Assembly: GCF_004023625.1 (NCBI RefSeq)
Contig: NZ_RPDJ01000014.1
Coordinates: 1 to 64,000 of the forward strand
Origin: Streptomyces cavernae
GTDB lineage: Bacteria; Actinomycetota; Actinomycetes; Streptomycetales; Streptomycetaceae
Direction of reading: 5' to 3'
DNA length: 64,000 nucleotides
Part shown: in pieces, positions 3,440-25,653 of the stretch
Layout: each line of letters starts with the position of its first letter
Numbering within the stretch: the stretch's first letter is position 1
Program-made: the position numbers and the translations under genes
The notes under the pieces: generated by a model
The model's input: only the letters and a program-made list of their open reading frames with translations
What the model was told of the DNA's origin: nothing
Databases searched by the model: none

Positions 3440-4048
3440 ATGGCACTGGGTACGGCCACGACCGCGACTACGACGCCCACGGCCCCGTACGAGATGCGGT
3501 TCGACTCCGGGCGGATCTGTCTGGATCTCGTCGCCACCACGCATCCCGAGGAACGGCTCGGCTCCGTGGAGCGGTTGAGGTTCTGGATCATGAGGGCCGG
3601 GCTGATACCGGCCGGGACCTCGCTCGCGGCGGTCGGCCCCGAGTGGCTGGTCGCCTTCTGCGAACTGCGCGGACACGTCGAACAATTGGTGTGCGGCGAA
3701 CTCGACGGCCGGCCCGCCGACGCCGCCCTCAACCGGGTCAACGGGCTCGCGATGTACCGGACGCCCGCGCCTCGCGCGGTCCGCACGGACGACGGAACCC
3801 TGTTGAGGAGGCTGCACGCCCCGCCCGGTTGTGCGGAACTGCTCGCCGTGGTTGCCCGTGACGCCGTCGAACTGCTGACGGACCCGGTGGCCCGGGCCGG
3901 CCTGCGCCAGTGCGAGGGGGACAACTGCCCCATCGTGTACCTCGACACGTCCCGGGGCCGCCGTCGGCGGTGGTGCTCCAGCGAGGTGTGCGGCAACCGG
4001 GAACGGGTGGCCCGGCACCGGCGGCGGGCGGCGCTCGCCCGGGCGTAG
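3440..4048 (+). CDS. CGNR zinc-finger protein (ABATE domain)
   Basis: This 202-residue putative stress-response transcription regulator has an N-terminal ABATE-like domain (about residues 15-150). A C-terminal CGNR zinc finger follows: Cys157 and Cys162, then WCSSEVCGNR and a basic stretch near residue 190. The CGNR finger is generally thought to bind DNA with zinc held by the four cysteines; all four are present. The start ATG 3440 has a weak GGCGGTGACAGG upstream. It stands alone upstream of sigU, with no operon partner. A role in regulating its neighbours is possible but not shown. Confidence 0.8.
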   Translation: MALGTATTATTTPTAPYEMRFDSGRICLDLVATTHPEERLGSVERLRFWIMRAGLIPAGTSLAAVGPEWLVAFCELRGHVEQLVCGELDGRPADAALNRVNGLAMYRTPAPRAVRTDDGTLLRRLHAPPGCAELLAVVARDAVELLTDPVARAGLRQCEGDNCPIVYLDTSRGRRRRWCSSEVCGNRERVARHRRRAALARA

Positions 4049-4467
4049 TGAGCGGGCCACCGGAACACCTCGGCACCCCGTCGAAAGCGGCACGGTCGAC
4101 CGGCTGAGCCGGCGTCAGGCGTGCCCCGCGGGAGAGGCGAGTCGGCGTCAAGCGCCCCGCACGGGTCGGTGAGTGGGCTCGAGAGGGTCCGAGGCGGTCT
4201 GACCCGGGGTTTTGTACATATTGTTCTCGGCCCTCGGTGTTTGCCGCCGGGGGCAGAGTCGTGCCGCCTGAGGCGGAGCGGTGACAGGGGAAACCTGCCC
4301 GTCAAATCACCCAAGCAGGAACAGAACCACCCGTCTCAGGGGCCTCAAACATCCGATTTCTCGATTCTCTGAACTTCTCTCAGAATCTCTTGAACACAGA
4401 CACGTCCGTACGCGTATCCGGATGTGAGCGACCGACTCGGGGGAACCCCCGGACACCGGAGGTAGGC
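4049..4467 (+). other. 419-bp region upstream of sigU
   Basis: No gene is supported. A rare AT-rich patch lies at about 4210-4230, followed by GGGGAAACC near 4278 and GGAACAGAACC near 4318. Both resemble ECF -35 elements, but I find no -10 at normal spacing. It is a plausible site for sigU autoregulation. A TTG at 4390 opens the sigU frame early but lacks a ribosome-binding site. Confidence 0.35.
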
Positions 4468-5046
4468 GTGCGCAAGGATCCAGCCGTGGCTGATGAACGC
4501 ACTCCGAGGGCCCGACATCGAATGTCCCAGCAGCCCTCGGAACCAGACGAGGAACTGATGCGTGCCCTGTACCGGGAGCATGCGGGTCCGTTGCTCGCCT
4601 ATGTGCTGCGGCTTGTCGCGGGGGACCGGCAGCGTGCCGAGGACGTCGTGCAAGAGACGCTCATCCGTGCCTGGAAGAATGCCGGTCAGCTCAACCGAGC
4701 TACCGGTTCCGTTCGACCCTGGCTGGTGACGGTCGCCCGACGCATCGTCATCGACGGACACCGCAGCCGGCAGGCCCGGCCGCAGGAGGTGGACCCGTCG
4801 CCGCTGGAGGTCATTCCTGCGGAGGACGAGATCGACAAGGCACTGTGGCTGATGACACTGTCGGACGCACTGGAAGACCTGACCCCTGCCCATCGCGAGG
4901 TCCTGGTCGAAACGTATTTCAAAGGGCGTACCGTCAATGAGGCAGCCGAGACTCTCGGCATACCCAGTGGCACGGTGCGTTCACGAGTGTTCTACGCGCT
5001 TCGCTCGATGAAGCTGGCGCTGGAGGAGCGGGGGGTGACGGCATGA
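4468..5046 (+). CDS. sigU: ECF RNA polymerase sigma factor SigU
   Basis: This 192-residue group 4 sigma factor has region 2 at about residues 30-100 (AEDVVQETLIRAW is the region 2.2 signature). Region 4 lies at about 135-186, with a helix-turn-helix containing IPSGTVRSRVFYALR. GTG 4468 is chosen as start because GGAGG at 4458-4462 sits 5 bases upstream. The stop overlaps the next gene by ATGA, so sigma and anti-sigma are translationally coupled. From memory it matches SCO2954 (sigU), whose overactivity blocks aerial growth in S. coelicolor. It is held inactive by RsuA at the membrane until an envelope-derived signal arrives. Confidence 0.87.
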   Translation: MRKDPAVADERTPRARHRMSQQPSEPDEELMRALYREHAGPLLAYVLRLVAGDRQRAEDVVQETLIRAWKNAGQLNRATGSVRPWLVTVARRIVIDGHRSRQARPQEVDPSPLEVIPAEDEIDKALWLMTLSDALEDLTPAHREVLVETYFKGRTVNEAAETLGIPSGTVRSRVFYALRSMKLALEERGVTA

Positions 5047-5819
5047 ACACGTTCCAACGGGGGCCCAGCGAGATTCACGAGACGGTCGGCGCTTACGCGC
5101 TCGGCATTCTCGACGACGCCGAGGCCACACAGTTCGAGGCACACCTCGCCACCTGCGAGTGGTGCGCCCAGCAACTGGACGAGCTGGCCGGCATGGAGCC
5201 GATGCTCGCCCAACTCGCCGATCTGCCCTCGGCCCACGGCGGCACACCGGCGCTCGGCGAACAGCTCGCGGCCCGGCCGAGCCAGCGGCTGTCGGACCGG
5301 CTGGCCGTCGAGGTGACGAACCAGCGCGCCAAGAAGAGCCGGCGCAACTTCTTCATGCTCGCCGCCTCGGCGGTGCTGGGCCTCGGCGGTGTTGCGGGCG
5401 GATTCGCCGCGGCATCCGGCGGCGACAGCGGCTCGAATCCCCCGGTGGCCGGCAGCAGCGCGCAGAAGGACTTCACCACCCTCTCGGACAAGGCCACCGC
5501 GACCGACCCCACCACCAAGGTCAGCGCCACCGTCGCCATGGCGTCGCGCCCCTGGGGCACCCAGACGGTCGTGGAGCTGAGCAACGTCGAGGGACCGAAC
5601 AAGTGCGCACTGGTTGCCGTGAGCAAGAACGGCACCCGGGAGACGCTCTCCTCATGGGCCGTTCCCAAGTGGGGCTACGGCCTCGCGAACGCCACGGACG
5701 AGCGCGGCAGGTCCCCGCTCTACGTGAACGGCGGCGCCGCGATGAGCATGAACGAGATCGACCACTTCGAGGTCGTGAGCCTCGAGGACGACAAGAAGCT
5801 GGTGACGGTGGACGTCTGA
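5043..5819 (+). CDS. rsuA: Anti-sigma factor RsuA (ZAS domain, membrane anchored)
   Basis: This 258-residue anti-sigma factor has an N-terminal zinc-binding anti-sigma (ZAS) motif: His near residue 13, then HLATCEWC around residues 33-40. A linker and one membrane helix at about 102-124 (FFMLAASAVLGLGG) follow. The C-terminal extracytoplasmic domain of about 130 residues is of the RskA/anti-sigma-K type. It overlaps sigU by 4 bases. It should bind SigU at the membrane and release it upon regulated proteolysis or zinc/thiol change. The cysteine pair suggests possible redox sensitivity, which is inference. Confidence 0.86.
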   Translation: MNTFQRGPSEIHETVGAYALGILDDAEATQFEAHLATCEWCAQQLDELAGMEPMLAQLADLPSAHGGTPALGEQLAARPSQRLSDRLAVEVTNQRAKKSRRNFFMLAASAVLGLGGVAGGFAAASGGDSGSNPPVAGSSAQKDFTTLSDKATATDPTTKVSATVAMASRPWGTQTVVELSNVEGPNKCALVAVSKNGTRETLSSWAVPKWGYGLANATDERGRSPLYVNGGAAMSMNEIDHFEVVSLEDDKKLVTVDV

Positions 5820-5829
5820 GCGAAATCCG

Positions 5830-5848
5830 GAGCGCACTTGTAGCGCTC
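5830..5848 (+). terminator. Small hairpin after rsuA
   Basis: GAGCGC at 5830-5835 pairs with GCGCTC at 5843-5848 over a 7-nt loop, 10 bases after the rsuA stop. It is weak as a terminator and could equally be an operator. Confidence 0.35.
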
Positions 5849-5861
5849 ACGTAGCCTCCAT

Positions 5862-5913
5862 GGGCCCCCTTCGCGTACGGTTGACGGCTGCATTGCACGT
5901 CAGAAGGGGGCCC
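5862..5913 (+). promoter_or_regulatory. Inverted repeat covering the helD ribosome-binding site
   Basis: An 11-bp perfect inverted repeat (5862-5872 with 5903-5913, 30-nt loop) spans the helD leader. Its right arm contains the purine-rich ribosome-binding site just before GTG 5915, so an mRNA starting upstream of 5862 would fold the site into a stem. A TTGACG at 5881-5886 lies in the loop without a matching -10. Confidence 0.5.
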
Positions 5914-5914
5914 G

Positions 5915-8275
5915 GTGGCCGCTCAGCACGCCGCGCACGCCACGGTCGATTCGACCCGCGACCGTGAGATCAGCGTCGAACAGACGCATCTCGACCGGGT
6001 CTACCGGCGCCTCGAGGAGAAGATCCACGAGGCGGAGTTCCTCATGCGCGACGCCGCCCAGCGCGGCCAGGTCGGCACGCCGGGGGCGCTCGCGGAGCGG
6101 GACGCGCAGGTCTTCCGCGCCGGGATCCATCTCAACCGGCTGAACAACGAGTTCGAGGACTTCCTGTTCGGCCGGATCGACCTTCTTCCCGGCAAGGACG
6201 GGAAGAAGGGGCCCGACGGCGCGTACACCGCGGTGGAACCGGCCGAGGGCGCCGTCCGAGCCGACAGCACGGCCGACATCGCGGAGACCCTGCACATCGG
6301 GCGCATCGGGGTCCTCGACGCCGACTACGCACCCCTGGTGATCGACTGGCGCGCGCCCGCCGCCGCCCCCTTCTACCGCTCCACCCCGGTCGACCCGGGG
6401 CGCGTCGTACGCCGCCGCGTGATCCGCTCCAAGGGACGCCGGGTGCTCGGTGTCGAGGACGACCTCATGCGGCCCGAGCTGACGGCGTACCTCGACGGCA
6501 GCGAACTGCCGGTGATCGGCGACGGCGCGCTGATGGCCGCGCTGGGCCAGGCCCGTACGCACACGATGCGGGACATCGTCGCGTCCATCCAGGCCGAGCA
6601 GGACCTGGTGATCCGGGCCCCCGCCGCTTCCGTGACCTATGTGGAGGGCGGCCCCGGCACCGGCAAGACGGCGGTGGCGCTGCACCGGGCCGCGTACCTG
6701 CTCTACCAGGACCGCCGCCGGTACGCGGGCGGCATCCTGATCGTCTCGCCCACCCCCCTGCTGGTGGCTTACACCGAAGGCGTCCTGCCCTCGCTCGGCG
6801 AGGAGGGCCAGGTCGCGATCCGGGCGCTCGGGTCCCTGGTCGACGGCGCGGAGGCCACGCTGTACGACGCGCCGGCGGTGGCGCGCGTCAAGGGTTCGTA
6901 CCGGATGCTGAGGGTGCTGCGGAAGGCGGCGCGGGGAGCTCTGGAGACCCCGCCCGAGGCGCCCGCGCAGCTCGCCCTCGGCGAGGACGACGAACCGGCC
7001 GCCCCCGCGCTCGCCCTCGCCGGGACCGGAACGCCCACCCGGCTCCGGGTGGTCGCCTTCGGTCGCCGTCTGGAGCTTCAGGACGAGGAACTCACCCGCA
7101 TCCGCCGGTCCGCGCTCAGCGGCACCGCCCCCGTCAACCTGCTGCGGCCCCGGGCCCGCAGGCTGCTCCTCGACGCGCTCTGGGAGCAGTCCGGCGCCGC
7201 CGGCCGGCACACCGACCCGGAACTCGCCGCCGAACTGCGTTCCTCCTTCGACGAGGACATCACCGCCGAGGACGACTTCATCGCGTTCATGGACGCCTGG
7301 TGGCCCGAGCTGACGCCCCGCGGCGTCCTGGCCGCCATGGCGGACGAGCGACGGCTGGGGCGTTGGGCGCGGCGCGAGCTCAACCCGGGCGAGGTGCGCC
7401 GTGTCGCCCGCTCGCTGCGGCGCGACGGGCTGACCGTGCACGACGTGGCCCTGCTCGACGAGCTCCAGGCGATCCTCGGCGTCCCGGCCCGTCCGCGGCG
7501 CAAGCGCGAGGCGGACCCGCTGGACCAGCTCACCGGCCTCGAGGAGCTGATGCCGGTGAGGGAGGAGTCCCAGCGCGAACGCGCCGAACGGCTCTCCCAG
7601 GAACGGGTGGAGTACGCGCACGTCATCGTGGACGAGGCCCAGGACCTCACGCCCATGCAGTGGCGGATGGTCGGCCGCAGGGGACGGCACGCCACCTGGA
7701 CCGTGGTCGGCGACCCGGCCCAGTCGTCGTGGTCGGACCCGGACGAGGCCGCGGAGGCCCGCGACGAGGCCCTCGGCACCCGCCCCCGCCGCCGCTTCAC
7801 CCTCACCGTCAACTACCGCAACCCGGCGGAGATCGCCGAACTGGCGTCGAAGGTGCTGGCCCTGGCCATGCCCGGCTCGCCGTCACCGTCCGCGGTCCGC
7901 TCGACGGGAGTACGACCGCGGTTCGCCCCCGTACGGGACTCCCTCGCGGCGACCGTACGGGCGGAGGCCGCACGGCTGCTCGACCAGGTGGACGGCACCG
8001 TGGGTGTGGTCGTCGCCATGAACCGGCGCGCGGAGGCGGCGCGCTGGCTCGCCGGGCTCGGCGACCGAGTGGTGGCGCTGGGCAGCCTGGAGGCGAAGGG
8101 ACTGGAGTACGACGCGACGGTCGTCGTCTCGCCCGCGGAGATCGCCGACGAGTCGCCGGCCGGCCTCAGGGTGCTGTACGTGGCGCTGACTCGTGCGACC
8201 CAGCAGCTGACGGTCGTCTCGGCGGACCGGGACGAGCCGGACGCGAACGGCGTGCCCGATCTGCTGAGGGACTGA
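5915..8275 (+). CDS. helD: HelD-family RNA polymerase-associated helicase
   Basis: This 786-residue UvrD/Rep-like ATPase is of the HelD group, which pulls stalled RNA polymerase off DNA and can confer rifamycin tolerance. The N-terminus (residues 12-60) is a predicted coiled coil, as in HelD proteins that reach into the polymerase channels. Walker A GGPGTGKTA lies at about 245-255, the DEAQD Walker B at about 572, and motif VI YVALTRATQQL at about 754. A large insertion sits between the two halves of the ATPase. Start GTG 5915 follows GAAGGGGG. It is monocistronic, with a hairpin downstream. I see no rifamycin-associated element upstream, so a dedicated HelR resistance role is not supported. 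Confidence 0.83.
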   Translation: MAAQHAAHATVDSTRDREISVEQTHLDRVYRRLEEKIHEAEFLMRDAAQRGQVGTPGALAERDAQVFRAGIHLNRLNNEFEDFLFGRIDLLPGKDGKKGPDGAYTAVEPAEGAVRADSTADIAETLHIGRIGVLDADYAPLVIDWRAPAAAPFYRSTPVDPGRVVRRRVIRSKGRRVLGVEDDLMRPELTAYLDGSELPVIGDGALMAALGQARTHTMRDIVASIQAEQDLVIRAPAASVTYVEGGPGTGKTAVALHRAAYLLYQDRRRYAGGILIVSPTPLLVAYTEGVLPSLGEEGQVAIRALGSLVDGAEATLYDAPAVARVKGSYRMLRVLRKAARGALETPPEAPAQLALGEDDEPAAPALALAGTGTPTRLRVVAFGRRLELQDEELTRIRRSALSGTAPVNLLRPRARRLLLDALWEQSGAAGRHTDPELAAELRSSFDEDITAEDDFIAFMDAWWPELTPRGVLAAMADERRLGRWARRELNPGEVRRVARSLRRDGLTVHDVALLDELQAILGVPARPRRKREADPLDQLTGLEELMPVREESQRERAERLSQERVEYAHVIVDEAQDLTPMQWRMVGRRGRHATWTVVGDPAQSSWSDPDEAAEARDEALGTRPRRRFTLTVNYRNPAEIAELASKVLALAMPGSPSPSAVRSTGVRPRFAPVRDSLAATVRAEAARLLDQVDGTVGVVVAMNRRAEAARWLAGLGDRVVALGSLEAKGLEYDATVVVSPAEIADESPAGLRVLYVALTRATQQLTVVSADRDEPDANGVPDLLRD

Positions 8276-24733: not shown

Positions 24734-25303
24734 GTGAGCATCACGGAAGCCGGAGCGGTGACCGGTGTGACCGACGAGCAGTGGGCGCTGATCGTGGGAC
24801 CGGCCGCCGAACGCGGACGCCGCGGTTCCGGTCCGGCGCAGGCCCTGTCCCACCGGTTCCTCGTCCAGGAGTTCGGCCCGGGCGCCGTGATGCGCTTCGA
24901 GGACGTGGACTTCCCGGCGGAGCTCGTCCATGAGCCCACCCGCTGCTTCCTGCGCGAGACCGGACTCCCGGAGGACGGGTTCCTGTTCCAGTTCGACACC
25001 GACGTTCCACTGCCGACGCTCGCCGAGTACTACGCGGAAGAACGCCCCGGCGAGTTCACCGAGGCGCAACTCCCCGCAGGAACAGGCCGGTTGATACGCC
25101 TGGGCCGACTGGCCGGAGGGCCGACCCCGGTGCTCGACGGGACGACGGGCGCCGTCCACGGCTGGCACGAACAGGACCTCACCCTGAGCCCCCTGAGCAC
25201 CGACATCTCCACCTTCGTGGTCACCCTCTGGCTGCTCCACCGCGGCTGGGGCACCACCCCGCGCCCCGGCGGTCTCGCCGGGAGCGGGCCGTCGTTCGCC
25301 TGA
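24734..25303 (+). CDS. SUKH-4-like immunity-type protein
   Basis: This 189-residue protein resembles the SUKH-4 immunity family. An N-terminal helix pair leads into FPAELVHEPTRCFLRETGLP, then a core ending in a WLL segment. SUKH proteins often protect against contact-dependent or polymorphic toxins, but orphan copies are common in Streptomyces. No toxin, WXG100 or secretion gene is adjacent. It starts at GTG 24734 with AGGGGGA upstream and appears monocistronic. Confidence 0.62.
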   Translation: MSITEAGAVTGVTDEQWALIVGPAAERGRRGSGPAQALSHRFLVQEFGPGAVMRFEDVDFPAELVHEPTRCFLRETGLPEDGFLFQFDTDVPLPTLAEYYAEERPGEFTEAQLPAGTGRLIRLGRLAGGPTPVLDGTTGAVHGWHEQDLTLSPLSTDISTFVVTLWLLHRGWGTTPRPGGLAGSGPSFA

Positions 25304-25386
25304 CCCATCGGCCACATTCCTCGGCCATGCTCAACGCGGACGAGAACTGAGACGCGCACACCCAAGAAACTGAGACGCGCACACAA

Positions 25387-25422
25387 GAAGGGGCTGGCAC
25401 CCGTGTTGGGTGCCGCCCCTTC
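25387..25422. terminator. Bidirectional terminator between SUKH gene and tRNA-Cys
   Basis: GAAGGGGC and GGCACCC pair with GGGTGCC and CCCCTTC around GTGTT, with mismatches between the two stem segments. On the minus strand it is followed by TTGTGTG. It can end both the SUKH transcript and the leftward tRNA transcript. Confidence 0.8.
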
Positions 25423-25446
25423 GTTCTGTCTGGTCGAGCCGGCGGA

Positions 25447-25481
25447 GGCCGTGGCGGGAATCGAATCCGCGTTACTCTCGG
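25447..25481 (-). pseudogene. Truncated 3' half of a tRNA-Cys copy
   Basis: These 35 bases (with two flanking bases) match the 3' part of the intact tRNA-Cys at 29 of 35 positions, covering the T arm and 3' acceptor strand. The acceptor GGCCGTG is intact. The invariant G53-C61 T-stem pair appears lost, and no D or anticodon arm precedes it. It lies 136 bp from the functional gene. It may be a remnant of integration into the tRNA 3' end, or a decayed duplicate. Confidence 0.6.
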
Positions 25482-25581
25482 CGGGCGGAGCCTGCTGTTG
25501 GATTCGGCGCAGGCGAGCCTCTGGGGCGCTTGGGTTCGCGGTCGGCTGGTGGTGTCTGGTCGGCCGCGTGTTGGGCAGTTG

Positions 25582-25653
25582 AGGCCGTGACTGGAATCGA
25601 ACCAGCGTAACTCGCTTTGCAGGCGAGTCCCTGAACCACTCGGGCACACGGCC
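25582..25653 (-). tRNA. tRNA-Cys (GCA)
   Basis: The reverse complement folds as a cloverleaf. The acceptor GGCCGTG/CACGGCC has U73 as expected for tRNA-Cys. The D arm is CCC/GGG. The anticodon stem CTCGC/GCGAG holds loop CTGCAAA, giving anticodon GCA, and the T arm contains GGTTCGATTCC. CCA is not encoded. Confidence 0.9.

What the first reader, a model, noticed from the sequence alone, without database searches (positions are those of the whole stretch)
25447..25653. Truncated tRNA-Cys half near an intact tRNA-Cys
The 3' 35 bases of tRNA-Cys are repeated, diverged, 136 bp away in the same orientation. Integrative elements that target tRNA 3' ends leave such duplications, so this may be an old attachment scar or a decayed duplicate tRNA. 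The spacer contains no recombinase.
Basis: partly seen in the sequence, partly recalled or inferred. Interest (0 to 1): 0.5.

Follow-up and report, generated by a model that had tools for sequence, protein, structure and literature searches.

The report
Decayed tRNA-like gene with element scar
The half tRNA beside tRNA-Cys is the worn-out end of an odd tRNA-like gene whose decoding loop is replaced by a folded hairpin that some other Streptomyces keep intact, and it is joined to what looks like a small leftover of a departed mobile element.

Summary
Bases 25445-25481 repeat the 3' end of tRNA-Cys (25581-25653, minus strand) at 28 of 33 positions, and 5000 shuffles never reached the alignment score. 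Two things overlap here.

(1) The half is the 3' part of a near full-length relic (25447-25543) of a tRNA-Cys paralogue, here called Cys2*, in which a structured insert of about 27 nt replaces the anticodon loop. Cys2* occurs in 30 of 392 Streptomyces genomes and in 16 of 297 genomes of the family, in three genera. The insert hairpin has compensatory changes in 3 of 4 pairs, and the insert differs about a third as much as 4-fold sites. The window's copy is decayed.

(2) The terminator-like hairpin and two CGTCTCAGT repeats behind it match the integrase end of AICE-type elements that sit at this tRNA-Cys in relatives. An attachment scar is likely, although no integrase or distal att copy remains.

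This tRNA-Cys is a second copy; a canonical one lies elsewhere. The function of Cys2* is inferred, not shown.

The parts
25581..25653 (-). intact tRNA-Cys(GCA), a second copy ('Cys2')
   Evidence: ARAGORN and Rfam RF00005, 61.4 bits; the canonical tRNA-Cys is in a Gly-Cys-Val cluster on another contig of the same genome
   Evidence: BLAST to copies in relatives, models R1 and R2 (R1 and R2 were built with this copy included), alignment A3; no Rfam hit up to E 5 in 25340-25580
25483..25508 (-). insert core (alignment positions 36-61), with the 5' side and loop of hairpin P3
   Evidence: alignment A3 and pair counts; in the window one of the four P3 pairs is broken
25387..25422 (-). terminator-like hairpin behind the half copy
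   Evidence: inverted repeat read; aligns with the flank of tRNA-Cys in relatives
25369..25377 (-). first CGTCTCAGT repeat
   Evidence: exact match; also found behind tRNA-Cys where elements sit
25346..25354 (-). second CGTCTCAGT repeat
   Evidence: exact match
25327..25350 (+). possible remnant of the integrase end (ATG..GAG AAC TGA)
   Evidence: reading against the integrase end of G033; too short to be significant, and tblastn found no integrase in the window locus

Best explanation
The feature is a composite relic. (a) The 'half tRNA' is the 3' part of a decayed Cys2*, a tRNA-Cys paralogue of Streptomycetaceae. Its body looks like tRNA, but its anticodon arm is extended: stems CTC/GAG and CCTGC/GCGGG, a conserved strand GCNGCAUCCAUCA, then a covarying hairpin. 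In better-preserved genomes it lies beside tRNA-Cys, most often just upstream, and probably makes a tRNA-like RNA that cannot decode. (b) The terminator-like hairpin and two CGTCTCAGT repeats behind it are the integrase-side end of an AICE-type element that used this tRNA-Cys as attachment site and was lost by deletion. Shown: homology to Cys2*, its conservation and covariation, elements at this tRNA in relatives, similarity of the window's flank to their integrase end. Inferred: that an element once stood in this very lineage, that Cys2* is transcribed and processed like tRNA, and that it acts as a regulatory or decoy RNA through its exposed strand.
For: BLAST of the region hit insert-bearing copies in G016, G033 and G020 (E 1.9e-18, 1.2e-15, 2.6e-14). 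Cys2* in 30 of 392 Streptomyces genomes, 16 of 297 family genomes in three genera and at 26 places in GTDB species genomes. Insert arm paired in 98.3% of cells, 19 double-change cells against 4.6 in shuffles, 0 of 500 as high. In G782, of another genus, the hairpin has other letters and still pairs. Insert core differs at 0.134 against 0.338 for 4-fold sites. Elements: distal 3' half in 10 of 65 loci and the integrase in 10 of 65; AICE-type proteins in G038. Window flank aligns to four integrase-side ends at 67-78, shuffle maximum 30. Repeats go with element signs: 14 of 21 loci against 1 of 44.
Against: No integrase and no distal att copy in the window. Six other loci besides the window have repeats but no other element sign. 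Terminators of element-free loci resemble the window's too (G427 scores 55). None of the six other downstream Cys2* loci shows the repeats. Single-sequence folds of five copies are no better than shuffles. A loose promoter pattern was found in 33 of 65 loci and not in the window. Presence on the tree is scattered, hardly more clustered than shuffled labels.
Confidence: 0.75

Rival explanations
1. Pure attachment scar: the 3' half was left by an element, and the likeness of the spacer to a tRNA 5' half with insert is chance.
For: Elements use this tRNA in relatives; the flank behind the half resembles their integrase end.
Against: The insert and 5' part align with Cys2* of many other genomes and the gapped alignment to tRNA-Cys beats all 5000 shuffles.
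Confidence: 0.05
2. Plain decayed duplicate: Cys2* is a non-functional tandem copy in all genomes, and no element was ever in the window; hairpin and repeats are ordinary flank.
For: Copies are often lost or damaged; single-sequence folds are unremarkable; repeat-bearing loci without element signs exist (7 of 21, the window included).
Against: Compensatory changes within the insert, which cannot come from the ordinary tRNA; low divergence of the insert; strong association of repeats with elements.
Confidence: 0.17
3. Cys2* works as DNA: a decoy or alternative attachment site whose altered anticodon loop blocks or diverts element integration.
For: The att core of the elements starts at the anticodon loop, exactly where the insert lies; where both genes and a recognisable element are present, the element signs found lie behind ordinary tRNA-Cys (e.g. 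G033, G016, G282, G283).
Against: A decoy needs no conserved RNA-like hairpin with compensatory changes. The window's own scar lies behind Cys2*.
Confidence: 0.15
4. The insert is an intron and Cys2* becomes a working tRNA-Cys after splicing.
For: In 7 of 40 carriers Cys2* has no ordinary copy beside it.
Against: I see no cut that restores the loop CTGCAAA. A canonical tRNA-Cys is present in all five lone-Cys2* genomes tested. Splicing of so small an insert is not known in bacteria (recalled).
Confidence: 0.03

Closest known systems
AICEs, actinomycete integrative and conjugative elements (PMC3218068 and PMC9513070, passages read)
   Same: Tyrosine integrase, integration at a tRNA 3' end, direct repeats, use of tRNA remnants as sites, decay to remnants; relatives of the window have such elements at this tRNA-Cys.
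   Different: The window has no element, only a flank that resembles the integrase side. The word 'Cys' does not occur in the main text of either paper; their site tables were not seen, so the site is not claimed as new.
Bacillus cereus tRNA-Other, a pseudo-tRNA beside a genomic island (PMC3399842, passages read)
   Same: A tRNA-like gene beside an island, not used in translation.
   Different: tRNA-Other has a Trp anticodon and was tested by deletion; Cys2* has its anticodon loop replaced by a hairpin-bearing insert and has not been tested.
Non-decoding tRNAs used in peptidoglycan synthesis (recalled; mentioned in the introduction of PMC3399842)
   Same: tRNA paralogues kept for a role outside translation.
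   Different: Those keep an ordinary anticodon arm (recalled); nothing here links Cys2* to aminoacylation.

Membership tests
Functional tRNA (RF00005) | Cloverleaf with a 7-nt anticodon loop | tested here: not met
   The loop is replaced by an insert in all 40 aligned copies. Two of seven non-window copies pass the Rfam cut-off; the window copy gives no hit up to E 5.
Functional tRNA (RF00005) | Acceptor and T arms pair | tested here: met
   In A2 (30 copies) acceptor 91.8% and T arm 98.7% of cells paired; window copy 5 of 7 and 4 of 5.
Non-decoding tRNA-like RNA (pseudo-tRNA with a role) | Stable transcript with a function | not testable with these tools
   Only conservation and covariation are available.
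AICE (elements of relatives) | Tyrosine integrase, att repeats at a tRNA 3' end | tested here: met
   G038 and G018: full-length integrase between tRNA-Cys and distal 3' half.
AICE (elements of relatives) | FtsK/SpoIIIE-type transfer protein and replication protein | tested here: inconclusive
   FtsK_SpoIIIE just over the cut-off in G038 (25.4 against 24 bits) and in G018 (28.2); no replication protein named among the nine proteins scanned, eight of them from these two elements.
AICE in the window | Integrase gene and two att copies around an element | tested here: not met
   No integrase match and no distal 3' half in the window locus.
AICE attachment scar | tRNA 3' half joined to the integrase-side flank of the element | tested here: met
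   Alignment scores 67-78 against shuffle maximum 30, two CGTCTCAGT repeats at 69 and 92 bases; the half itself belongs to Cys2*, so the join is indirect.

The most novel reading that the evidence does not exclude
Cys2* is an undescribed family of non-decoding tRNA-like RNAs of Streptomycetaceae. It would be made and trimmed like tRNA-Cys, with an exposed conserved strand (GCNGCAUCCAUCA) and a covarying hairpin in place of the anticodon, and be kept by selection for a regulatory or decoy role at a tRNA locus that AICE-type elements repeatedly invade.
Probability: 0.55. Interest if true: 0.75.

Novelty: new variant of a known kind. Interest (0 to 1): 0.5.

Why it matters
A gene that keeps the tRNA body but swaps its decoding end for a covarying hairpin would be a natural non-coding RNA on a tRNA scaffold, in antibiotic producers where deletion and small-RNA sequencing are routine. 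It also warns that half tRNAs near tRNA genes may be relics of such paralogues and not only integration scars. The relatives give a graded series of element decay at one tRNA, with intervals from 14.6 kb to 0.8 kb and then scars.

Tried and rejected
Alternative helix CTCGC/GCGAG with a 17-nt loop: 96.5% of cells paired but 2 double-change cells, reached by 11 of 500 shuffles, against 19 cells and 0 of 500 for the extended arm; not excluded, less supported. ARAGORN's naming of Cys2* as tRNA-Gly, -Glu or -Arg differs between copies and was taken as an artefact. A deletion running into the SUKH-4 gene: dropped, because G420, G322, G157, G254 and G285 have similarly short matches ending at the same place. 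Plasmid or phage carriage: no match to one Cys2* copy (G236) in either collection. Outside the family: only the window's own genome among 394 of the class at E 1e-10. Single-sequence folding: z -1.73, -0.75, -0.76, +0.23, -0.47 for five copies. The double changes TTC/GAA in stem P1 may come by gene conversion with the neighbouring tRNA (G351's ordinary tRNA has them), so the structural case rests on hairpin P3 inside the insert. Papers: searches listed none; some searches listed papers, of which I read passages of four; none of what I saw describes an insert-bearing tRNA-Cys. The library lacks most subscription journals.

Full report
Observation. The window has one tRNA-Cys(GCA), at 25581-25653 on the minus strand. 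Its 3' end is repeated at 25445-25481 in the same orientation, 136 bp away, with 28 of 33 identical positions from GAG to CGGCCTC. A gapped alignment extends through the tRNA 5' half, with a 24-nt gap after CTGC in the anticodon loop (10, 12 and 4 nt blocks around the letters AAAGC, as the aligner drew it). Its score of 56 was not reached in 5000 first-order shuffles (maximum 38.5), and the next best place in the window scored 34.5.

The half is part of a longer relic. BLAST of the 381-bp region against 100 relatives hit, in G016, G033 and G020, a second copy beside the ordinary tRNA-Cys over query 238-314, which includes the insert (E 1.9e-18, 1.2e-15, 2.6e-14). These copies have a nearly intact tRNA-Cys 5' half, an insert of about 27 nt in place of most of the anticodon loop, and a 3' half. 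I call them Cys2*. A sequence model (R1, seven copies, the window's included) found Cys2* at 58 bits or more in 30 of 392 Streptomyces genomes, the window's own counted; the remaining listed hits, ordinary copies, reach 45.5 or less. A structural model (R2) found it at 74 bits or more in 16 of 297 genomes of the family, in three genera (g1, g146, g153), the remaining hits at 70 or less, and only in the window's genome among 394 of the class at E 1e-10. These scans use strict filters and can miss weak copies. An exact pattern of the insert gave 26 stretches in GTDB species genomes, 25 of Streptomyces and one of Streptantibioticus, each with tRNA-Cys-like sequence on at least one side. That pattern requires the insert to be conserved, so it says nothing on conservation, and some of these are the same genomes as G handles, so the counts must not be added.

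Arrangement. In the 40 carriers examined, Cys2* is upstream of tRNA-Cys within 400 bp in 24, downstream in 7 (the window included), without an ordinary copy in 7, and 3.6-3.8 kb upstream in 2. Of the 30 rows of alignment A2, 27 had the MFS gene and 28 the xanthine-dehydrogenase-like gene in the fetched stretch, so the locus is the same. For five of the seven lone carriers a whole-genome search found no ordinary copy of this tRNA. All eight genomes tested with a pattern, those five and the window's included, have a canonical tRNA-Cys elsewhere: seven in a Gly-Cys-Val cluster, one (G320) on a contig that ends after it. So the tRNA-Cys of the window is a second copy. A loose promoter-like pattern stood upstream in 33 of 65 loci and not in the window, so transcription is assumed.

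Conservation and structure. Over 429 genome pairs, 4-fold sites of the two flanking genes differ at 0.338 on average, the anticodon arm plus insert at 0.106, the insert core at 0.134, the 5' part at 0.142 and the 3' part at 0.153. After dropping six copies that I judged divergent (window, G003, G027, G320, G285, G351), 272 pairs give 0.330, 0.075, 0.099, 0.082 and 0.127. In 40 aligned copies (A3) the extended arm pairs in 98.3% of cells with 19 double-change cells (shuffled mean 4.6, 0 of 500 as high; slid versions at most 2); further pair types do not exceed shuffles (404 of 500). Hairpin P3 carries most of this: AU in 26 and GC in 13 copies at one pair, and rarer changes at two others. In G782 (genus g146) the hairpin reads GCGGCC-TGGC-GGCCGC where most read GCGAGC-TCC-GCTCGC, and still pairs. 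Cells are not events, and the 13 copies may reflect few changes, but G782, G935 and G958 carry further, different double changes. The bottom of the hairpin can instead pair with the 5' strand (stem P2 against P3x); both versions fit. The competing helix is less well supported. Folds of five single copies were not clearly better than shuffles. On a tree of the flanking gene (52 loci, 36 carriers, chosen in favour of carriers) presence needs at least 12 changes, against 14.0 for shuffled labels, 77 of 500 as low. The tree cannot tell gain from loss; because the insert is shared across three genera I prefer an old origin with many losses.

The window copy is decayed. Of the pairs, the acceptor stem keeps 5 of 7, D 2 of 3, T 4 of 5, P1 3 of 3, P2 3 of 5, P3 3 of 4 and P3x 2 of 2 (P2 and P3x compete). 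Rfam finds nothing in 25340-25580 up to E 5, while two of seven other Cys2* copies pass the tRNA cut-off.

Element scar. In 8 of the 20 relative loci fetched (chosen partly because one search showed distal hits) a second 3' half lies 0.8-14.6 kb downstream. A tyrosine integrase of one family lies in that interval in five of the eight: full length in G038 and G018, incomplete or in pieces in G040, G033 and G046. G282, G283, G335 and G922 also match this integrase, and G004 keeps only a C-terminal piece. Proteins of the 14-kb G038 element match integrase, HTH_17, FtsK/SpoIIIE and GntR/UTRA families, which fits an AICE; the FtsK match is only just over its cut-off and no replication protein was named. 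Most distal copies are preceded by ACAAACCTGCAAAGCGAG, that is, the shared att sequence starts at the anticodon loop. On the integrase side the tRNA is followed by a hairpin and CGTCTCAGT repeats; in G038 the integrase stop codon lies in a repeat. Behind the window's Cys2* come a similar hairpin and CGTCTCAGT twice, 69 and 92 bases on. This flank aligns with the integrase sides of G046, G024, G038 and G012 at 78, 71, 70 and 67 (shuffle maximum 30). Among 65 loci repeats occur in 21, of which 14 show integrase or distal half; of 44 without repeats, 1 does (Fisher p 2.5e-8, not corrected for kinship or for the choice of loci). Against this: terminators of some element-free loci or distal copies also resemble the window's (G040 distal 62, G427 55), and 7 repeat-bearing loci, the window's and G012 among them, show no other sign. 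A possible remnant of the integrase end at 25327-25350 is too short to count.

How the two fit. If elements cross over in the anticodon loop, integration into Cys2* would have replaced its insert, which is still there. So the flank may have come by recombination between 3' halves, or the element end may be older than the present order of genes. The data do not decide. None of the six other downstream Cys2* loci has the repeats.

Known systems. AICE integration at tRNA 3' ends, use of tRNA remnants, accretion and decay are described (PMC3218068 and PMC9513070, passages read). Neither main text holds the word 'Cys'; the site tables were not seen, so the site is not claimed as new. The nearest precedent for a non-decoding tRNA at an island edge that I found is B. 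cereus tRNA-Other (PMC3399842, passages read). PMC9262613 (passages read) describes a different new Streptomyces tRNA near a possible integrative element. Searches for an insert-bearing or pseudo-tRNA of this kind showed none in this library.

Verdict. In the window this is a small relic. It leads to a conserved and, as far as I could see, undescribed tRNA-like gene family. My own odds: Cys2* identity about 0.93, element scar about 0.8, functional RNA about 0.55. I did not change them after checking.

Noticed in passing
window 24734-25303: The gene next to the locus matches SUKH-4 immunity proteins (PF14435, 103.5 bits); in many relatives it is about 415 aa long, here 189 aa and matching only residues 212-357 of the G003 form.
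   Followed up: partly
L101 (G157) and L102 (G254), oriented 3567-7208 and 4136-7994: Cys2* and the ordinary tRNA-Cys are separated by about 3.6-3.8 kb, with no match to the integrase; what lies between was not examined.
   Followed up: no
L045 (G027) 2299-2554: Two Cys2* copies in tandem, about 160 bp apart, with the intervening sequence repeated too. G208, Streptantibioticus rubrisoli and Streptomyces sp. CoH27 also have two copies.
   Followed up: no
L050 (G057), oriented 2073-2147 and 4765-4839: Two complete tRNA-Cys genes 2.7 kb apart, with related genes (family F12) behind each, as if the locus had been duplicated.
   Followed up: no
L124 (G183) and L197 (G273): These two are close sisters on the flanking-gene tree, yet one has Cys2* and the other does not: a recent loss or gain that could show the mechanism.
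   Followed up: no
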